Positions 1,495 through 63,302 of a stretch of 64,000 bases of DNA are shown here, in pieces. This DNA is from Okeania sp. SIO1I7. GTDB lineage: Bacteria > Cyanobacteriota > Cyanobacteriia > Cyanobacteriales > Microcoleaceae. The notes under the pieces were generated by a model. It saw only the letters and a program-made list of their open reading frames with translations, was not told where the DNA came from and did not search any database. Both the position numbers and the translations under genes were made by a program. Positions within the stretch are counted from its first letter, which is position 1. Every line of letters begins with the position of its first letter. The stretch covers positions 107,717-171,716 of the forward strand of contig JAAHGF010000008.1 in NCBI GenBank assembly GCA_010672585.1. The letters are read 5' to 3'.

Positions 1495-1556
1495 ACCTCT
1501 TTCAAATTAGCTGATGAGTATTTTTATCATTAAAAATAATTTATAGCAATCAGGAA

Positions 1557-1736
1557 TTAGTTGTGAGAATTTAGGTGTTCCTTAAAAGTAAAGGAATAAA
1601 TTGATAATATGGCAATACAAAGCCAAATAAACACAACAACCCATAGAAATATTTCATTTGTAAAAGCTAGATTTATCTCAGTATAGAACCAATTTGGGAA
1701 CCATTTAAAATCAGAATATAGCTCTGATAAGTTCAT
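1557..1736 (-). CDS. Small single-TM tryptophan-rich protein, 59 aa
   Basis: This minus-strand frame starts at ATG 1734-1736 and stops at 1557-1559. The protein begins MNLSELYSDFKWFPNWF, has one strongly hydrophobic stretch around residues 29-49 (FLWVVVFIWLCIAILSIY) and ends in a polar tail with Lys, Glu and His. It lies downstream of, and in the same orientation as, the two-TM channel-like gene at 2024-2497. I do not recognise a family and see no clear Shine-Dalgarno sequence. The composition (five Trp in 59 residues and one clean membrane span) is unlike the shadow frames around it. It could be an accessory subunit of the neighbouring membrane protein. Coding is inferred from composition alone. 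Confidence 0.45.
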   Translation of the reverse strand: MNLSELYSDFKWFPNWFYTEINLAFTNEIFLWVVVFIWLCIAILSIYSFTFKEHLNSHN

Positions 1737-1779
1737 CTTTAACTGTAACGACTCTAATCATTTATTTTTAAGTTTTACC

Positions 1780-1886
1780 GAAAAATTGTGGTTTAAAACC
1801 TCCCCTTTTAAGGGGATAATAAATAAAAATTTTCCTTTCAGTCAATCCTCTTCTTTTCAAGGAGAGGTAATTGTTAATTATAGCAG
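1780..1886 (-). repeat. Dispersed repeat family A, inverted copy
   Basis: Read on the minus strand it gives ATTACCTCTCCTTGAAAAGA, then GAGGATTGACT, a CCCCTT...AAGGGG hairpin, and ends near TTTTTCGGT. Related copies lie at 29950-30045, 46985-47105 and 14621-14805, with fragments at 3257-3397 and 3640-3680. The rest of the 1469-2023 gap, apart from the small ORF at 1557-1736, shows no gene. Confidence 0.65.
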
Positions 1887-2023
1887 TCGAAGCAAAGGTT
1901 AGGACAGATTAAAAGCTTAAAACTCAGACAACGCAAGGTTTTTCCTTCTTCCTTCTTTCTTCTTCCTTCTTTCTTCTGCCATATTCATTATTCATTATTA
2001 ATTATTAATTGTTGAAATCTCGA

Positions 2024-2497
2024 TCATTTTGCTAAATGCTCATCTTGTTGGTAATCTTCATTGTTGAGATGAACACGAAATTGACTTAACAAACTATAGA
2101 CCAAAGGAGATAAAAGAATTCCCATCGCTATGACAAAAACCAAACCACTAAAGAGCGCATAAACAGAAGCAAATACTTTCGCGCTAGTAGTTGAGAGGGG
2201 ACTAATTGGTCCCATACCACTAAGAATCATCGAAGCTTCTACTAGAGAATCTATCCAACTCAAACCCCCTGCCCAATGATAGCCAATAATGCCCATCATA
2301 AGTCCCAGAGAGATAAAAATTGCAGACAGACCCAGATAGCTGAGAAACTTCCACAGAAAGAGAAAAATTGACCTTGTTCGCTCTGATGAAGTCCAAGTGT
2401 TCGGTTCTTGAATCACATTTAAACCAGAGGAACGGATGAGAAATATTATAATTACTAAAATTAATAGTCCATATATGAGCATATTTCTAAAATCCAC
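2024..2497 (-). CDS. Two-TM channel-like membrane protein (Ion_trans_2-like, atypical filter), 157 aa
   Basis: Hydrophobic segments lie at about residues 6-22, 46-70 and 108-135. A short loop between the last two reads SWIDSLVEASMILSGMGPIS. This TM-pore-loop-TM layout resembles two-TM potassium channels, but the usual T-V-G-Y-G filter is replaced by SGMGP. Potassium selectivity therefore cannot be assumed. The C-terminal tail is short and charged (NNEDYQQDEHLAK), with no RCK domain attached. The gene converges on the TrkA-C fragment at 986-1468 and has the 59-aa membrane ORF downstream. The start at 2497 is the first Met. Its role is unknown; ion channel is a hypothesis from topology. Confidence 0.5.
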   Translation of the reverse strand: MDFRNMLIYGLLILVIIIFLIRSSGLNVIQEPNTWTSSERTRSIFLFLWKFLSYLGLSAIFISLGLMMGIIGYHWAGGLSWIDSLVEASMILSGMGPISPLSTTSAKVFASVYALFSGLVFVIAMGILLSPLVYSLLSQFRVHLNNEDYQQDEHLAK

Positions 2498-2747
2498 TTC
2501 ACGGTTATCTTAATATATAGGGCTAAAACAAGAGAAACTACTGTAAGCGTGCCCACCAATTTTGTCATCCTTTTATGGTAAACTTTTTAAGTCCTTAGTT
2601 TCGAGCATTGCATAGTCCAAAACCTTGAGTAGAATGAGGCTAACTATAACTAATATGCAGCGTGAGTTGTTGTAAAACTCATTATGAGTAGGATATATTT
2701 GCATATTTTTTAATAACTGTTTTTAAGTTAAGTTACTGATTAAATTT

Positions 2748-3602
2748 ATGGTTAAAACTATTCAATCTCAAGAAATTACTCTCCGCTATTTGGTTGATAA
2801 TTTCGGTTTGCAGTTAGTCAGAGACGAGCAATTTTTTCGAGAATGGCAAGATGATTTGCCAGAGATTAGTGACTGGGAAAAAGAACTACTTAATCAAGTT
2901 CAAGAGGGATATTTTAATTTATTACAAAATCCACCTTTTTTAGAAGATATTGTCAGAATGGCAATAGTCGATCCTATTTTATTTATTGGGAAATTTTTTC
3001 TCTATCCTTATCACATTCGTTCTGAAAATCCTATTAATTTAGAACTAGCAGATAAAGAGGTGATTATTAGAGGTCGAATTGATGCTCTTGTTATGAAAGA
3101 GCAGTTATGGATGATGGTTATTGAGTCTAAAAGAGCCGAGTTTTCTATAGAAGCTGGTCTGGCTCAATTATTAACTTATCTAATAGCTAGTTCCTATCCT
3201 GAACATCCTAATTATGGTTTAATTGTGACCGAAGAAATAAGGTCTCAAGCCTCTTATTTCAAGGGGATAAAAAGCGGTTGAGGGATGGCGAGGTTTCCTC
3301 GCCATATCCAATCAACCAAGAAAAGAAAATTTCCTATTTCAAGCCTCCTTATTGCAGAGGTACTGATAACTGATAACTGATAACTGATAACTGAAATGAC
3401 GGGTGGCAGTTTCATTTTTGTGAAGTTAATCAAGACAGAAGTTCCTCAATATGCTACGTCAAAAATGTTTGCTATTCGTAATCCGGGTAATGAACTTTTT
3501 GATGTTCTTAGTATTCTTAAACGTTTGAGTAAAATAGTTATTAATAGACATCTCCAGAAAAGAGAGAACAGGGAACATGAAACTTGGAATAGTGAGGAAT
3601 AA
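2748..3602 (+). pseudogene. HsdR-N-like restriction-nuclease-fold protein, interrupted by a repeat
   Basis: The first part (2748-3254) encodes about 169 residues with a PD-(D/E)XK-type core. It contains VIIRGRIDALVMKEQLWMMV, then IESKRAEFSIEAGLAQLLTY, which supplies the D...ESK nuclease triad seen in type I restriction R-subunit N-domains. The frame breaks after NYGLIVT. The missing C-terminus reappears at 3396-3602 (GGSFIFVKLIKTEVPQYATS, then DVLSILKRLSKIVI). About 140 bp of repeat lies between the halves, with TGAC at both junctions. Cyanobacteria carry many solitary proteins of this family, about 200 residues long, so this is most likely a dead solitary copy and not part of an hsdRMS operon. 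Confidence 0.75.
3257..3397. mobile_element. Short repeat element interrupting the HsdR-N-like gene
   Basis: The insert holds a palindrome (GGCGAGGTTTCCTCGCC), two copies of an AAGCCTC motif, and four to five CTGATAA heptamers at its right end. Parts match repeat family A (see 14621-14805, which has the same ATGG...GAGG...CTCGCC module). TGAC flanks both sides and the coding frame resumes after it, consistent with insertion plus a 4-bp duplication. Confidence 0.65.
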
Positions 3603-3688
3603 TTGATAATTTATCGATAATAATTGATTTTATTTTTAATTTTTAAAAGAGACGCTTTAAACCTTAATTATTCGGTAATTGTTAATTA

Positions 3689-3895
3689 GGGTTTGCTGAA
3701 AAAGTCTGATGGTGATGGTAGTCAACAGGCAACAGGCAAAAGTTTAGGGTATCTGCTACGGCAAAATTTTCGGCATTGTCAGGGAAAAATATTAGCATTT
3801 TGAGACTAATTGAGCCAAAAACCTTGCACTTTTGTCAGAATAAAAAACCCTGGAAGGCAGAACTGGCATTGATTATAATTTTATTCAGCAAGCCC
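3689..3895. mobile_element. MITE family 1, copy 1 (207 bp)
   Basis: Terminal inverted repeats GGGTTTGCTGAA and TTCAGCAAGCCC are flanked on both sides by the 6-bp target duplication TAATTA (3683-3688, 3896-3901). There is no ORF. Other copies are at 10595-10858, 22209-24030 (interrupted by a TnpB remnant) and 60091-60364. Confidence 0.8.
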
Positions 3896-3945
3896 TAATT
3901 ATTAATTATTAATTATTAATTATTAATTATTAATTATTAATTGTT
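3896..3945. repeat. Tandem heptamer repeat (TTAATAA)n before the CDF gene
   Basis: About six units end 6 bp before the CDF start codon, so the leader of that gene lies in or beyond the array. Upstream, 3640-3682 carries a fragment of repeat family A (GCTTTAAACCTTAATTATTC). Confidence 0.85.
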
Positions 3946-3950
3946 GAACC

Positions 3951-4868
3951 ATGTCTACCGATAATCGTAAACAAGTCCGCAAAGTTTTAATCATAACTTT
4001 ACTACTAAATTTATTAGTGATGTTAATCAAAGCAGGAATAGCATTTTGGACAGGTTCTCTGAGTCTATTTGCTGATGCTTTGCACAGTGTTACTGACAGT
4101 GCTAATAACATTTTAGGGTTAGTCACAAATCATCTTGCCTCCCCTAAACCAGACCGACAATATCCATACGGACATCAAAAATTTGATGCTATTGGCGCTT
4201 TAGGTATTGCTGCTTTCCTTGGTATTGCTTGTTTTGAAATTCTCAGTGCAGCAATACAACAAATAGTGGGGGGTAGTCAAGAGGTAAATATTTCCCCACC
4301 TGCGCTATGGATATTATTAATTGTGCTTGGGATTAATATTTTTGTGGCATTTTATGAACGTCGGGTAGGACAAAAAATCGGTAGTAGTATTTTAATTGCC
4401 GACTCCCACCACACCATGAGCGATATCTGGGTTACAGTAATTGTTATAGCTGGATTAATTGGTATTTGGCAAGGAAATATCTGGAATTTACCTATTTTCC
4501 GTTGGTTAGACGTGGTTTTAGCTTTTCCCGTCGCTCTTTTAGTGTTTCGGAGTGCTTGGGAAGTTTTGAAAGAAAATTTGCCTTGGTTGGTAGACTATAT
4601 GGCAGTTGCACCAGAAGCTATTCATGCGATCGCCATGGAAGTTCGGGGAGTAGTAAATTGTCATGATATTGCTTCTCGTGGAATTATCGGTCGTCAGGTA
4701 TTTATTGAAATGCACCTGATTGTTAATTCAAATGATATAGAAACTGCTCATCAAATTACCGAAAAAGTAGAAGCGCGTCTACAAGAAAGGTTTTATCCTG
4801 CCAGAATTATGATTCACGTTGAACCCCCTGCTTATAAATCAGAACATATTTCTTATGAAAGGGAGTAG
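3951..4868 (+). CDS. Cation diffusion facilitator (CDF) family metal/proton antiporter
   Basis: CDF proteins export divalent metals such as Zn, Fe, Co or Mn in exchange for protons. The 305-residue protein has the family layout of about six TM helices (residues 12-215) and a cytoplasmic metal-binding tail. The two transport-site motifs are visible: FADALHSVTDSANN in TM2 and ADSHHTMSDIWVT in TM5. The first has D..H/D where ZitB/YiiP-type exporters have HxxxD or DxxxD. The conserved YPYGHQKFD loop follows TM2. The C-terminal domain ends IMIHVEPPAY, as usual. Substrate cannot be read from sequence. The length is normal and the start follows a heptamer repeat without an obvious ribosome-binding site. 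Confidence 0.9.
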   Translation: MSTDNRKQVRKVLIITLLLNLLVMLIKAGIAFWTGSLSLFADALHSVTDSANNILGLVTNHLASPKPDRQYPYGHQKFDAIGALGIAAFLGIACFEILSAAIQQIVGGSQEVNISPPALWILLIVLGINIFVAFYERRVGQKIGSSILIADSHHTMSDIWVTVIVIAGLIGIWQGNIWNLPIFRWLDVVLAFPVALLVFRSAWEVLKENLPWLVDYMAVAPEAIHAIAMEVRGVVNCHDIASRGIIGRQVFIEMHLIVNSNDIETAHQITEKVEARLQERFYPARIMIHVEPPAYKSEHISYERE

Positions 4869-4970
4869 GGAGATGGGGAGATGGGGAGATAGGGAGATGG
4901 GGAGATGAGGAGATGGGGAGATGGGGAGATGGGAACCCACCCCTAACCCCTCCCAGGAGGGGGATGTAGA
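4869..4970. repeat. (GGGAGATG)n tandem repeat plus GC-rich palindromic repeat
   Basis: Eight-base purine-rich units begin right after the CDF stop and run to about 4931. They are followed by AACCCACCCCTAACCCCTCC-type sequence and the inverted arm at about 4933-4970. The same pairing of a purine repeat with this palindrome recurs around 11170, 27428 and 37685. Confidence 0.8.
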
Positions 4971-5183
4971 AAAAGATTTGGCAATGGCGCTCAGATGGAA
5001 CATTTTTTTATATTGAACCCGAGCAAATTTGATATTATTTTTCCTTTTAAGATTTTCCAGAATAGGTAAAGTTTTCCACAGTTAAACTACAGTTTTCCAC
5101 AGAATTTTCCACAAAGATTAAGGTTAAGTTAAAGTCTAAAACATCAATTATTTAAGATTCACTAATATTTTTCTTTGAGGAGT

Positions 5184-60411: not shown

Positions 60412-60611
60412 AACACTACTTATAGTGTGGCACTATAGTTTTGTTCTAGTATATATAGTGTCTCAGGGTAAGTAGAATTATATCTGGTTCGAGTAACTGA
60501 CTATCCCTATAATTTAAGACTAACCACAAATCTAATCAAAACGCAAATTTTGTGTTGAAATGGTTAGTCCAGCCCACTTTTTTCAAGTAAACGTTATTTT
60601 AGTCACAATAC

Positions 60612-60748
60612 GTCGGGATTCTCGCCAGTTCCAACCTCTATTATTCGGCATTAAACAGGCAAAGAGATTTGAAAAGCTAGTGTGCCGAACGTAAAAAGCT
60701 TAAATAACCGGGCGAGGCCAACTTAACACGAGAGTAGAAGGGACGCAA
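60612..60748 (+). ncRNA. HEARO / omega-RNA of the IscB element
   Basis: The segment directly upstream of the IscB start matches the expected place and style of HEARO RNA, the guide RNA of IscB. Stems are visible: CTCGCC (60621-60626) pairs with GGCGAG (60711-60716), and TTCGGCA (60644-60650) pairs with TGCCGAA (60683-60689), nested inside the first. AACCTCTATTATT and AAATAACCGGGCGAGG suggest further pairing. The guide should lie just 5' of about 60612. Ends are approximate. Confidence 0.75.
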
Positions 60749-60750
60749 CA

Positions 60751-61257
60751 ATGTCCAATTCAACCAATTATGTATTCGTACTTGACGCCAAGAAAAAAAC
60801 CCTAGCACCATGCAAACCAGCTATGGCGAGGTCATTGTTAAAAGCTGGCAAAGCCAAAGTTTTTAAGCGCTACCCTTTCACAATAATTCTGAATAAATTG
60901 GTAGCTCTTGATTTTCAAGGCTTGCAATTAAAAATTGACCCTGGTTCCAAACAAACAGGTTTTGCAATAGTTGCCCAAAGTGAAGAAGTTATCTTTGCAA
61001 TGGTTTTAGTCCATCGTGGCCAGCAAATCAAAAATGCCTTGGAGCGACGGCGAACTCTTCGTCGAGGTCGTCGTCATAGAAAAACTCGCTACCGTAAGTG
61101 TAGATTTCTCAACCGCAAACGAAAAAAAGGATGGCTGCCACCAAGTTTAAGGCATCGGGTTTTGACTGTAGAAACTTGGGTTAATAGACTTTGTAAACTA
61201 AGCCCAGTAAGTAGTTTGGCTATAGAATTGGTCAAGTTTGACACCCAGAAAATACAG
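60751..61257 (+). CDS. iscB: IscB nuclease, exon 1 (split by group II intron)
   Basis: IscB is the RNA-guided, RuvC/HNH nuclease ancestral to Cas9. Exon 1 encodes 169 residues: the N-terminal PLMP-like domain (LAPCKPAMARSLLKAGKAKV FKRYPF region), RuvC-I LKIDPGSKQTGFAIV with the catalytic Asp, the arginine-rich bridge helix (RRRTLRRGRRHRKTRYRKCR), and RuvC-II SLAIELVKFDTQKIQ with the catalytic Glu. The coding sequence breaks exactly after the CAG codon at 61255-61257, where GTGCG (intron 5' consensus) begins. The unspliced frame adds only VRLVGH and stops at 61278. The start is preceded by AGAAGGGACGC. Joined to exon 2 the product is 426 residues, usual for IscB. Confidence 0.9.
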
Positions 61258-62400
61258 GTGCGACTCGTTGGCCACTAAACTAGGAAACTAGGTATAAATG
61301 GCCGTTCCAAGTCAATACATGAAGACAACCTCGACTTGTGAATAACTCTTATTGCCTTGGTGGTGAAATTCCATCCGCCTTGTTGTTAGGTTGACAGCAT
61401 AGATCACGGAGTAGAGACTGAACATCAATCTCCGAAGCTGGTTTAAAAGCGGGAAAATACCAGTTACCGAGGAACGATACCGCAAGCAGAGGCTGACAAG
61501 TGGACGAATAGGAAGATAATTAAACTCTCGTGAGCTGGAACCATCCCAAAGGTAGCTATGGGATGTAGGACGAAAATCAGAGGGTCATTGGATATTATTA
61601 TCTGTATGATAATATCAACAACCATACCGAACCCTTCGGGAGATTTTACCCCACTAAATCAGCCGTAACAAAGGAATAAGGGAACGAGGAAACCTCTCTA
61701 AGACACCTAAGAATAAAGGATGGGCAAACTACTTCTCAACCGTAGTCAGTAAAGACATTTTTAAAAAAATGGATATGCTCCTATGGAAAAGACTATGGAG
61801 ATGGGCGAGTAGAAGGCATCCCAATAAGTCGGCTGAATGGGTCAAGGAAAAGTATTTCCCCAGAGTTAAAACCAGAAATTGGGTACTTAACGATGGCGAA
61901 TATATACTAAACCAACACTCAGATGTTCCTATTATAAGGCACGTTAAAGTGAGAGGTAATAAATCCCCTTATGACGGCGACTGGACTTATTGGAGTAGTA
62001 GAATCGGTAAACATCCAGGCGTAAGGAAAGAAGTCACAACGCTGTTAAAACGGCAAAAGAATAAATGCGCATTTTGTGGACTAACCTTCAGGTCAAGCGA
62101 CCTTATGGAAGTAGACCATATAAAACCTAAATCTGAAGGTGGTGACGACAAACTAAAGAATAAACAACTGTTGCACCGACATTGCCACGATACTAAAACG
62201 GCCTTAGATAAAAAGACGTACGCAAAACCAAAGGTACAGGACTTACCTGAAAATTATTTATGGGTTGACGATATGTTGATATTAAGGCAGGGATGTACCC
62301 ATGAAAAGGGACGTTTAAGAGAGGAGCCGTGTGAGGTGAAAGTCTCACGCACGGTTCTGAAGACGAGTCGGGTAGGGTAACTTACCTGGCTTAGTTTAAC
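61258..62400 (+). mobile_element. Group II intron (1143 nt) within iscB
   Basis: The 5' end is GTGCG, matching the GUGYG consensus; the 3' end is AC. A 34-nt domain V is present at 62324-62357 (GAGCCGTGTGAGGTGAAAGT, closing with ACGGTTC). Domain VI follows, with a candidate bulged A at 62393, 7 nt before the 3' end. The last six exon bases ATACAG (62-base region 61252-61257) pair with CTGTAT at 61602-61607, which sits in the loop of a GATATTAT/ATAATATC hairpin, as expected for IBS1-EBS1. The ribozyme thus looks complete. The encoded maturase is truncated. Confidence 0.9.
61697..62380 (+). pseudogene. Truncated intron-encoded protein: maturase domain X plus HNH endonuclease
   Basis: The open frame from about 61697 reads KGWANYFSTVVSKDIFKKMD, then LLWKRLWRWASRRHPNKSAE (domain X), DWTYWSSRIGKHPGV, and an HNH nuclease CAFCGLTFRSSDLMEVDHIK...LLHRHCHDTK. 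The first in-frame ATG is at 61769. The entire reverse transcriptase region that should precede domain X is missing. The remnant cannot reverse-transcribe; splicing and mobility would need a maturase in trans. The last codons run into domain V. Confidence 0.85.
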
Positions 62401-63174
62401 AACCCAGAAATTTCAGGAGTTGAATATCAAAAAGGGGAACTATTTGGTTATGATGTCCGGGAATATCTATTAGAGAAATGGGGTCGATCATGTGCTTATT
62501 GTGGAGTAACAGATACGCCCTTAGAAGTTGAACACATAGTTCCACGGTCAAAAGGTGGTAGTAATAGGGTGTCTAATTTAGCCATAGCTTGTCATCAATG
62601 CAACCAAAATAAGGGTGCTATGGATATTCGGGAATTTCTCGAAAATAAACCGTCTGTACTAGCTCGCATTCTAAAGGTTGCCAAAACGCCGTTAAAAGAT
62701 GCTGCTGCGGTTAACTCAACTCGCTCTAAAATTTTTGAAACTTTAAAAGCAAAAGGTTTGCCAGTGATTGCTGGTAGTGGTGCTGGTACTAAATACAATC
62801 GTTGTCGGTTGAATTTACCAAAAGAACACTGGATAGATGCTGCTTGTGTTGGTGAAGTTGAAAACTTAACAATATTTACTTCTCAACCCCTGGTCGTCAC
62901 AGCAATGGGACATGGTTGCCGACAAATGGTACAGATGGATAAATACGGTTTTCCAAGAATTGGTTACAAAGCAAAAAAACCTGTACCAGGTTGGAAAACA
63001 GGGGATATTATCAATGTGGTCAAAGGCAAAAATGCTGGATTAAAAGGAGTGAGGATTAAAACTGTGAGAAGCAAAGGCAACTTTGATATCCGAAAGGGGG
63101 ATAAAATCTTGTCTGTATCTCGAAACCATATCCAATCTGTCCATAGACGAGATGGATACAATTACTCATTTTGA
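62401..63174 (+). CDS. iscB: IscB nuclease, exon 2 (split by group II intron)
   Basis: Begins [20 protein letters not shown], the sequence expected directly after KFDTQKIQ in IscB. The HNH domain follows: [34 protein letters not shown]. RuvC-III is at [12 protein letters not shown], with catalytic His/Asp. The C-terminal PAM/TAM-interacting domain includes [20 protein letters not shown] and [18 protein letters not shown]. It ends at YNYSF. The exon has no ATG in place, so it depends on splicing or on internal initiation (first ATG in frame near 62623). All catalytic residues of both nuclease domains are present across the two exons. Confidence 0.9.
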
Positions 63175-63302
63175 GTATATTTTTTCTAAGAGTACGCAAC
63201 AGAAGATAAATACAGTCAATAATAATAACATTTAGCCTAAACCCGTTTATGGTCTAAAAATTGGGCTGAAATAAAAATAGGTAACAATAGAGAAGAGTCA
63301 AC

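What the first reader, a model, noticed from the sequence alone, without database searches (positions are those of the whole stretch)
60751..63174. IscB RNA-guided nuclease gene split by a group II intron at a codon boundary
Exon 1 ends after the RuvC-II motif at a codon boundary, followed by GTGCG. The intron has a 34-nt domain V, a domain VI with a candidate branch A, a 3' AC and an EBS1-IBS1 pairing. Joining 61257 to 62401 gives the uninterrupted IscB sequence [18 protein letters not shown] and 426 residues with all RuvC and HNH residues. Nuclease production therefore depends on RNA splicing. A ribozyme controlling expression of a Cas9-ancestor nuclease, with its omega-RNA on the same transcript upstream, would be an unusual regulatory arrangement. 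I do not know of a described case.
Basis: partly seen in the sequence, partly recalled or inferred. Interest (0 to 1): 0.9.

Follow-up and report, generated by a model that had tools for sequence, protein, structure and literature searches.

The report
Gene-cutter gene split by damaged intron
In a marine cyanobacterium, the gene for a small RNA-guided DNA-cutting enzyme is interrupted by a removable RNA insert that has itself lost a catalytic part, so the cell can make the enzyme only if the damaged insert can still be cut out of the message.

Summary
The split gene is real. Exon 1 (60751-61257) and exon 2 (62401-63174) match the NCBI IscB profile at positions 1-164 and 165-314, exactly contiguous. 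Four related iscB copies carry the site empty. The insert (61258-62400) is a group II intron: D5/D6 at 60.9 bits, 6/6 EBS1-IBS1 pairing, covarying domain I. An omega-RNA lies just upstream. The intron's family splits rpiA and rpsB in relatives with no unsplit copy found there, so that family very likely splices.

A deletion at 61714|61715 removed half of domain II, all of domain III, the start of domain IV and the reverse-transcriptase part of the maturase gene. A domain II-III model scores 195-219 bits in five sister introns of this genome, 20.5 here. Shortened sisters in a lysozyme-like gene and in a relative's cysK kept domain III; those in iscB and a broken tnpB lost it.

My reading: nuclease production depends on splicing, but splicing is probably weak or lost unless sister introns help in trans. 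My searches found no paper describing a group II intron in iscB.

The parts
60502..60517 (+). candidate guide of the omega-RNA (16 nt just 5' of the HEARO match)
   Evidence: inference from position and recalled IscB biology; the unit shared with L088-L091 begins at 60516-60518
60518..60727 (+). omega-RNA (HEARO)
   Evidence: RF02033 84.6 bits, gathering score 83
60751..61257 (+). iscB exon 1 (169 codons, RuvC-I and RuvC-II)
   Evidence: NF040563 1-164, 233.8 bits; Pfam RRXRR 216.7 bits
61252..61257 (+). IBS1 ATACAG
   Evidence: pairs 6/6 with EBS1
61258..62400 (+). group II intron, internally deleted derivative
   Evidence: sister introns 85-89% identical in the same genome; D5/D6 RF00029; empty sites
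61264..61688 (+). domain I
   Evidence: consensus structure over 24 copies, 39 of 116 pairs with changes on both sides; 3 of 112 pairs non-canonical in the window
61602..61607 (+). EBS1 CTGTAT
61535..61538 (+). weak EBS2 CTGG, pairing CCAG at 61245-61248
   Evidence: 4 bp by reading; 4/6, where 11 other exons score better
61692..61714 (+). remnant of domain II (5' strand only); deletion point 61714|61715
   Evidence: alignment to sisters; model R1 20.5 bits
61715..62380 (+). remnant of the intron protein gene: tail of the maturase domain and HNH; RT domain gone
   Evidence: Pfam HNH 50.1 bits, GIIM 22.6 bits (cut-off 23), no RVT match
62324..62357 (+). domain V
   Evidence: RF00029 and RF04357
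62359..62400 (+). domain VI and 3' splice site, bulged A at 62393
   Evidence: RF00029, fold
62401..63174 (+). iscB exon 2 (257 codons + TGA; HNH, RuvC-III)
   Evidence: NF040563 165-314, 206 bits; Pfam HNH
60517..63192 (+). mobile unit (omega-RNA + iscB), shared limits with four copies elsewhere
   Evidence: blastn limits in L088-L091

Best explanation
A CL-type group II intron inserted itself, in the sense strand and at a good EBS1/IBS1 site, into the iscB gene of a small mobile unit (omega-RNA + iscB) in an Okeania-like cyanobacterium. At first it could be spliced out like its relatives in rpiA, rpsB and cruF (inferred). An internal deletion then removed half of domain II, domain III, the start of domain IV and the reverse-transcriptase part of the intron protein. 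Full-length IscB still needs exon joining, because unspliced RNA gives only a 175-aa fragment. The intron can no longer supply its own maturase and lacks a catalytic effector domain, so splicing is now probably weak and helped in trans by sister-intron proteins, or lost. The omega-RNA lies upstream and does not need splicing. Shown: gene, insertion, empty site, pairing, host genes of the family, deletion. Inferred: splicing level, order of events, silencing. CL-type is recalled from the literature on cyanobacterial introns, not tested by a tree.
For: Contiguous IscB profile match. Empty sites in four copies. D5/D6, EBS1 pairing, domain I covariation. Sister introns with long maturase ORFs in the same genome: L028 614 aa (RVT_1, GIIM, HNH by Pfam) and L029 627 aa (not scanned). 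The family splits rpsB in G011 and rpiA in 4 of 7 genomes searched, with no unsplit copy found in those. Domain III is absent from the window copy. Of 35 intron 5' ends, 30 hit a domain II-3'/III profile and L146 is found by the larger model; 4 lack it: window (iscB), L027 (broken tnpB), L031 (145-nt remnant), L144 (host unclear). Shortened introns in L030 (lysozyme-like gene, 195-217 bits) and L154 (cysK) keep it.
Against: The exons carry no stop or indel and domain I is no more decayed than in sisters, as expected if splicing still mattered or if the deletion is recent. Exon changes private to the window copy are 6 synonymous: 8 non-synonymous against 48:29 pooled for the four relatives, Fisher p 0.24, so relaxed selection is not shown. 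Deletion work on yeast group II introns, recalled and not read here, found some self-splicing without several domains.
Confidence: 0.6

Rival explanations
1. One reading: the intron splices well (with a maturase from sister introns) and gates IscB production.
For: Clean exons, 6/6 EBS1, intact D5/D6, normal domain I, sister maturases in the genome, and a family that sits in single-copy rpiA and rpsB of relatives.
Against: Domain III and half of domain II are missing. In one search none of the copies in profile-named host genes other than iscB and tnpB (rpiA, rpsB, recF, dnaG, cysK, cruF) lacks domain III.
Confidence: 0.2
2. The gene is simply dead: the intron no longer splices at all and the exons are early in decay.
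For: Domain III loss shared with copies in a broken tnpB and a 145-nt remnant; a second intron-bearing iscB (L173) is decayed; private changes 6:8.
Against: No disabling change in either exon; private-change ratio not different from relatives, p 0.24.
Confidence: 0.5
3. The internal deletion is an assembly error among similar introns and the real intron is full length.
For: Several sister introns exist, which can confuse assembly.
Against: Sisters are only 85-89% identical, the intron lies inside an 825-kb contig, and the retained parts differ from every sister found.
Confidence: 0.05
4. The 175-aa product of unspliced RNA, with the omega-RNA, has a role of its own (for example binding without cutting).
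For: Exon 1 ends soon after the RuvC-II motif and adds only six intron codons.
Against: It lacks HNH and RuvC-III; I know of no such natural fragment (recall); not tested.
Confidence: 0.05

Closest known systems
Group II introns inside protein genes of Trichodesmium erythraeum (PMC4649490; passages and section 2 read)
   Same: introns in conserved protein genes; 10 of the 17 documented spliced introns lack an ORF and may use maturases encoded elsewhere
   Different: host genes there are cell genes; here the host is the nuclease gene of a mobile unit, and domain III is missing
ORF-less group II introns of Thermosynechococcus elongatus (PMC2882425; passages read)
   Same: arose by internal deletion from ORF-containing introns, mobilised in trans, most with good EBS/IBS pairings
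   Different: there the deletions are described in DIVb and DIVa2; here domains II and III are hit
IscB with omega-RNA (RF02033; NF040563)
   Same: omega-RNA directly upstream of an iscB with RuvC and HNH parts
   Different: the coding region is split by a group II intron
IStrons (PMC4227781; passages read)
   Same: a self-splicing intron combined with an insertion sequence
   Different: IStrons are group I introns associated with the IS; here a group II intron sits inside the nuclease gene of the unit

Membership tests
group II intron | domains V and VI, AY 3' end | tested here: met
   RF00029 60.9 bits, 62322-62400
group II intron | 5' GTGYG and EBS-IBS pairing | tested here: met
   GTGCG; EBS1 6/6, best among 34 exons; EBS2 weak (4 bp)
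group II intron | domain I core | tested here: met
group II intron | domains II and III | tested here: not met
   only the 5' strand of domain II remains; hence filed as a degenerate derivative, not a complete group II intron
group II intron | RT/maturase in the intron, or one acting in trans | tested here: inconclusive
   own RT gone; sister ORFs of 614 and 627 aa exist; action in trans not tested
group II intron | splicing | not testable with these tools
   no RNA data
IscB / OMEGA nuclease | RuvC and HNH segments in the joined protein | tested here: met
   NF040563 1-164 and 165-314; best solved chain 9k30_A 1.5e-40
IscB / OMEGA nuclease | omega-RNA upstream | tested here: met
   RF02033, 1.6 bits over the gathering score
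IscB / OMEGA nuclease | RNA-guided DNA cutting | not testable with these tools
   no biochemistry
IStron | group I intron carrying the IS genes | tested here: not met
   group II intron inside the gene; no group I match in Rfam

The most novel reading that the evidence does not exclude
The iscB intron, having lost its domain III and its own reverse transcriptase, is still excised because sister group II introns of the same cell supply both a maturase and the missing RNA domain in trans. IscB production would then hang on other introns' RNPs: a bacterial step toward a shared, spliceosome-like splicing machine, with a Cas9-ancestor nuclease as its client.
Probability: 0.12. Interest if true: 0.85.

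Novelty: new variant of a known kind. Interest (0 to 1): 0.47.

Why it matters
As far as my searches show, this is an undescribed host for group II introns: the nuclease gene of an RNA-guided mobile unit. It is a natural test of what a bacterial intron needs in the cell: domains I, V and VI kept with perfect EBS1, but domain III and RT lost, in a cell with intact sister introns. If it splices, it bears directly on how introns came to depend on shared trans-acting machinery. If it does not, it shows how introns decay in genes that the cell can do without.

Tried and rejected
Same insertion elsewhere: a pattern for FDTQK followed by GTGYGAC over 388 genomes of the order matched 4 genomes, and only the window is iscB; of the other three, L156 was opened and lists no iscB ORF of 100 aa or more, while L157 and L158 carry the same matched letters and were not opened. 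The pattern demands TTT for Phe and this intron start, so it cannot rule out other codons or intron types. A similar pattern over genome contigs found nothing. The intron in plasmid records: 20 records matched, none with 80% of the query in one place.

Interrupted iscB elsewhere: from the (truncated) match list (61 genomes, 48 with a match) I chose by eye 20 stretches with short frames or partial coverage. L173 holds a second group II intron in an iscB. L171 holds a TnpB-type insertion, L177 a transposase-type one, L178 TnpB-like pieces (names recalled). The other 16 were examined only by tblastn, three of them (L160, L172, L176) also with Rfam. This is not a census.

Regulation as a purpose: Rfam gave only HEARO and two group II models in the window. 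An origin of the IscB HNH from intron HNH: both score against the same profiles, but that is a shared superfamily; not pursued. Purifying selection after insertion: too few private changes to tell.

A claim I dropped on checking: that all shortened introns of this genome lost domain III. Two shortened ones in L030 keep it.

Papers: searches. Passages read in PMC4227781, PMC4649490 (also its section 2), PMC8987985, PMC8919778, PMC2882425, PMC3410883, PMC4424553; all others seen only as search listings. The four 'iscb' counts in PMC4227781 are, in the passages shown, names such as ISCbt4. Recalled, not read: deletion studies on yeast group II introns, the 2005 trans-maturase study, the 2021 IscB paper.

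Full report
What is there. At 60518-60727 the window carries an omega-RNA (HEARO, 84.6 bits, gathering score 83), followed by an ATG at 60751 and an open frame to 61278. Its first 169 codons are the front half of IscB: NF040563 positions 1-164 (233.8 bits), Pfam RRXRR 216.7 bits. The back half, 62401-63174, matches NF040563 positions 165-314 (206 bits). The halves meet in the profile with no position missing or doubled. The joined 426-aa protein matches solved IscB chains (9k30_A 1.5e-40, 7utn_D 1.4e-29), and the two alignments printed cover the RuvC-I, RuvC-II, HNH and RuvC-III segments (segment names recalled). The genome has one other full iscB (C66, 59% identical in exon 2), which reads straight through the junction.

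The empty site. Four copies 91-93% identical in exon 2 protein, three in same-genus and one in a same-family genome, have open frames of 442-452 aa. In DNA they run through the junction without a gap, and their coding parts are 1278 nt without stop, like the joined window. The last 20 nt of exon 1 are identical in all four; the first 20 nt of exon 2 differ by 0, 0, 1 and 3 bases. Records of matching contig length are Okeania hirsuta PAB10Feb10-1 and Okeania sp. SIO2B3, SIO3B5 and SIO3I5, so the window is most likely Okeania. The four copies share the limits 60516-60518 and 63192 with the window and no flanking sequence tested, so omega-RNA plus iscB is a mobile unit. Beside ndhH in four other same-genus genomes blastn finds no such unit in the roughly 1.5 kb fetched.

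The insert. 61258-62400 begins GTGCG and ends AAC. D5 and D6 match RF00029 at 60.9 bits up to 62400. The genome holds sister introns 85-89% identical to it: 2521, 2543 and 2551 nt, and shortened ones. L028 carries a 614-aa protein with RVT_1, GIIM and HNH; L029 has one of 627 aa, not scanned; that of L026 (621 aa) differs from both in an otherwise shared RT stretch. In 34 intron copies from this and related genomes EBS1 fits each copy's own exon: sum 398, permuted mean 190.2, sd 17.4, 0 of 10000 as high; 25 of 34 have 6 of 6 pairs; for 18 of 34 no other exon scores better. The window has 6 of 6 and no better exon. EBS2 also fits overall (268 against 99.5, 0 of 10000) but weakly in the window (4 of 6, 11 exons better). 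Some copies share homologous sites, so the permutation overstates independence. Domain I is supported by 39 of 116 pairs with changes on both sides, 0 of 500 shuffles as high; the structure was derived from the same alignment, which favours it.

The family very likely splices (inference). Of 23 copies with both ends in hand, 18 have a sense open frame of 120 aa or more across the joined exons, in one of them (L141) with only 6 codons downstream. Hosts by profile: rpsB 348 bits, rpiA 296, cruF 464 (this genome), cysK 556, and first exons of dnaG 50.6 and recF 31.7 (short pieces, below the whole-protein cut-offs). The CYTH name is recalled; no NCBIfam model matched it. In G011 rpsB was found only as two exons (the genome is 83% complete). 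RpiA was found only in two pieces in G001, G004, G021 and G028 and whole in G000, G002 and G003. In G021 the pieces lie on different contigs; in G001 the second match counts one TAG but runs into intron sequence, and the joined exons have no stop.

The damage. Aligned with sisters, the window intron stops matching at intron nt 457 and resumes inside the maturase gene. Sisters have, between the end of domain I and the maturase start codon, two structured blocks with 38 predicted pairs, 10 with changes on both sides. By position these are domains II and III; the naming is mine, from the standard order of domains. A covariance model of this block (19 sequences, L026, L028 and L029 among them, the window and L030 not) scores 218.7, 217.4, 216.1, 204.9 and 195.3 bits in five introns of this genome (L026, L030, L028, L029, L030), 121.5 and 24 in two weaker L030 matches, 106.6 in L146, 69.6 in L027, 60.2 in L173, 19.1 in L144 and 20.5 in the window, where only the first strand of domain II aligns well. 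A profile of the domain II 3' strand plus domain III hits 30 of 35 intron 5' ends (for 12 of the 35 only 900 nt were given); the misses are the window, L027, L031, L144 and L146, and L146 is found by the larger model. So the copies lacking domain III are in iscB, in a tnpB whose first exon is itself off frame (L027), in a 145-nt remnant and in an unclear place. Shortened introns in a lysozyme-like gene (L030, name recalled) and in a relative's cysK (L154) keep it. One paper's introduction calls domain III a catalytic effector recruited by the lower stem of domain II (PMC3410883, passage).

What follows. Whether splicing still happens is open. For it: clean exons, perfect EBS1, a normal domain I (3 of 112 pairs non-canonical; other copies 0-10), sister maturases. 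Against it: no domain III, no maturase of its own, loss of the start of domain IV where maturases usually bind (recalled). Private exon changes of 6:8 against 48:29 pooled do not decide (p 0.24). I put good splicing at about 0.2, weak or helped splicing at 0.3 and none at 0.5.

Second case. In a same-family chromosome (G019) an iscB carries a group II intron with a 580-aa RT/maturase (TIGR04416 324.8 bits) from 1818 to about 4290 of L173, about 25 codons further on than in the window. Its second exon has an in-frame TAA, the frame across the junction is off by one if the Rfam 3' end is right, and its 5' part reads N, so this gene looks decayed. Group II introns have thus entered iscB at least twice in this family.

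Literature. Searches for IscB with group II intron (15 papers), TnpB with group II intron and cyanobacteria (4), Okeania with intron (1), IscB with self-splicing (5) and TnpB with IStron and splicing (1) gave no title or shown abstract describing such a gene. I opened only some of these papers, and the library lacks most subscription journals and preprints.

Noticed in passing
L030 (G000:C27:3500-15500), intron 5' ends at 2089, 6061, 8645: Three group II introns of the same family lie in one stretch whose exons read like one lysozyme-type gene (name recalled); a similar multi-intron stretch appears in L143 of a relative.
   Followed up: partly
L026 (G000:C55), 3' end of the intron at 1785, minus strand: One base after this intron ends another GTGCGACTCGTT start follows: apparently two group II introns back to back, after a frame that looks like the start of a DNA adenine methylase (name recalled).
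   Followed up: no
L031 (G000:C88:60000-65000), 2241-2385 minus strand: A 145-nt remnant joins the first 59 and last 86 nt of the same intron family (95-97% identical), outside the window on the same contig.
   Followed up: partly
L027 (G000:C39:1-6500), 2558-4065 minus strand: A shortened intron of the family sits in a tnpB gene upstream of its RuvC-III-like end; exon 1 of that tnpB runs off frame through what looks like a short inserted repeat.
   Followed up: partly
L173 (G019), 1503-4978: A second iscB with a long group II intron at a different site, in a gene that looks decayed.
   Followed up: yes
L171 (G001:C62): A C66-type iscB (91-93% identical) is cut in its HNH region by a TnpB-type insertion: one RNA-guided nuclease element inside another.
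   Followed up: partly
G001, G004, G021, G028 (L122, L129, L132, L139, L155): rpiA is split by this intron family at the same codon in four genomes and whole in three others, a clean system to study gain and loss.
   Followed up: partly
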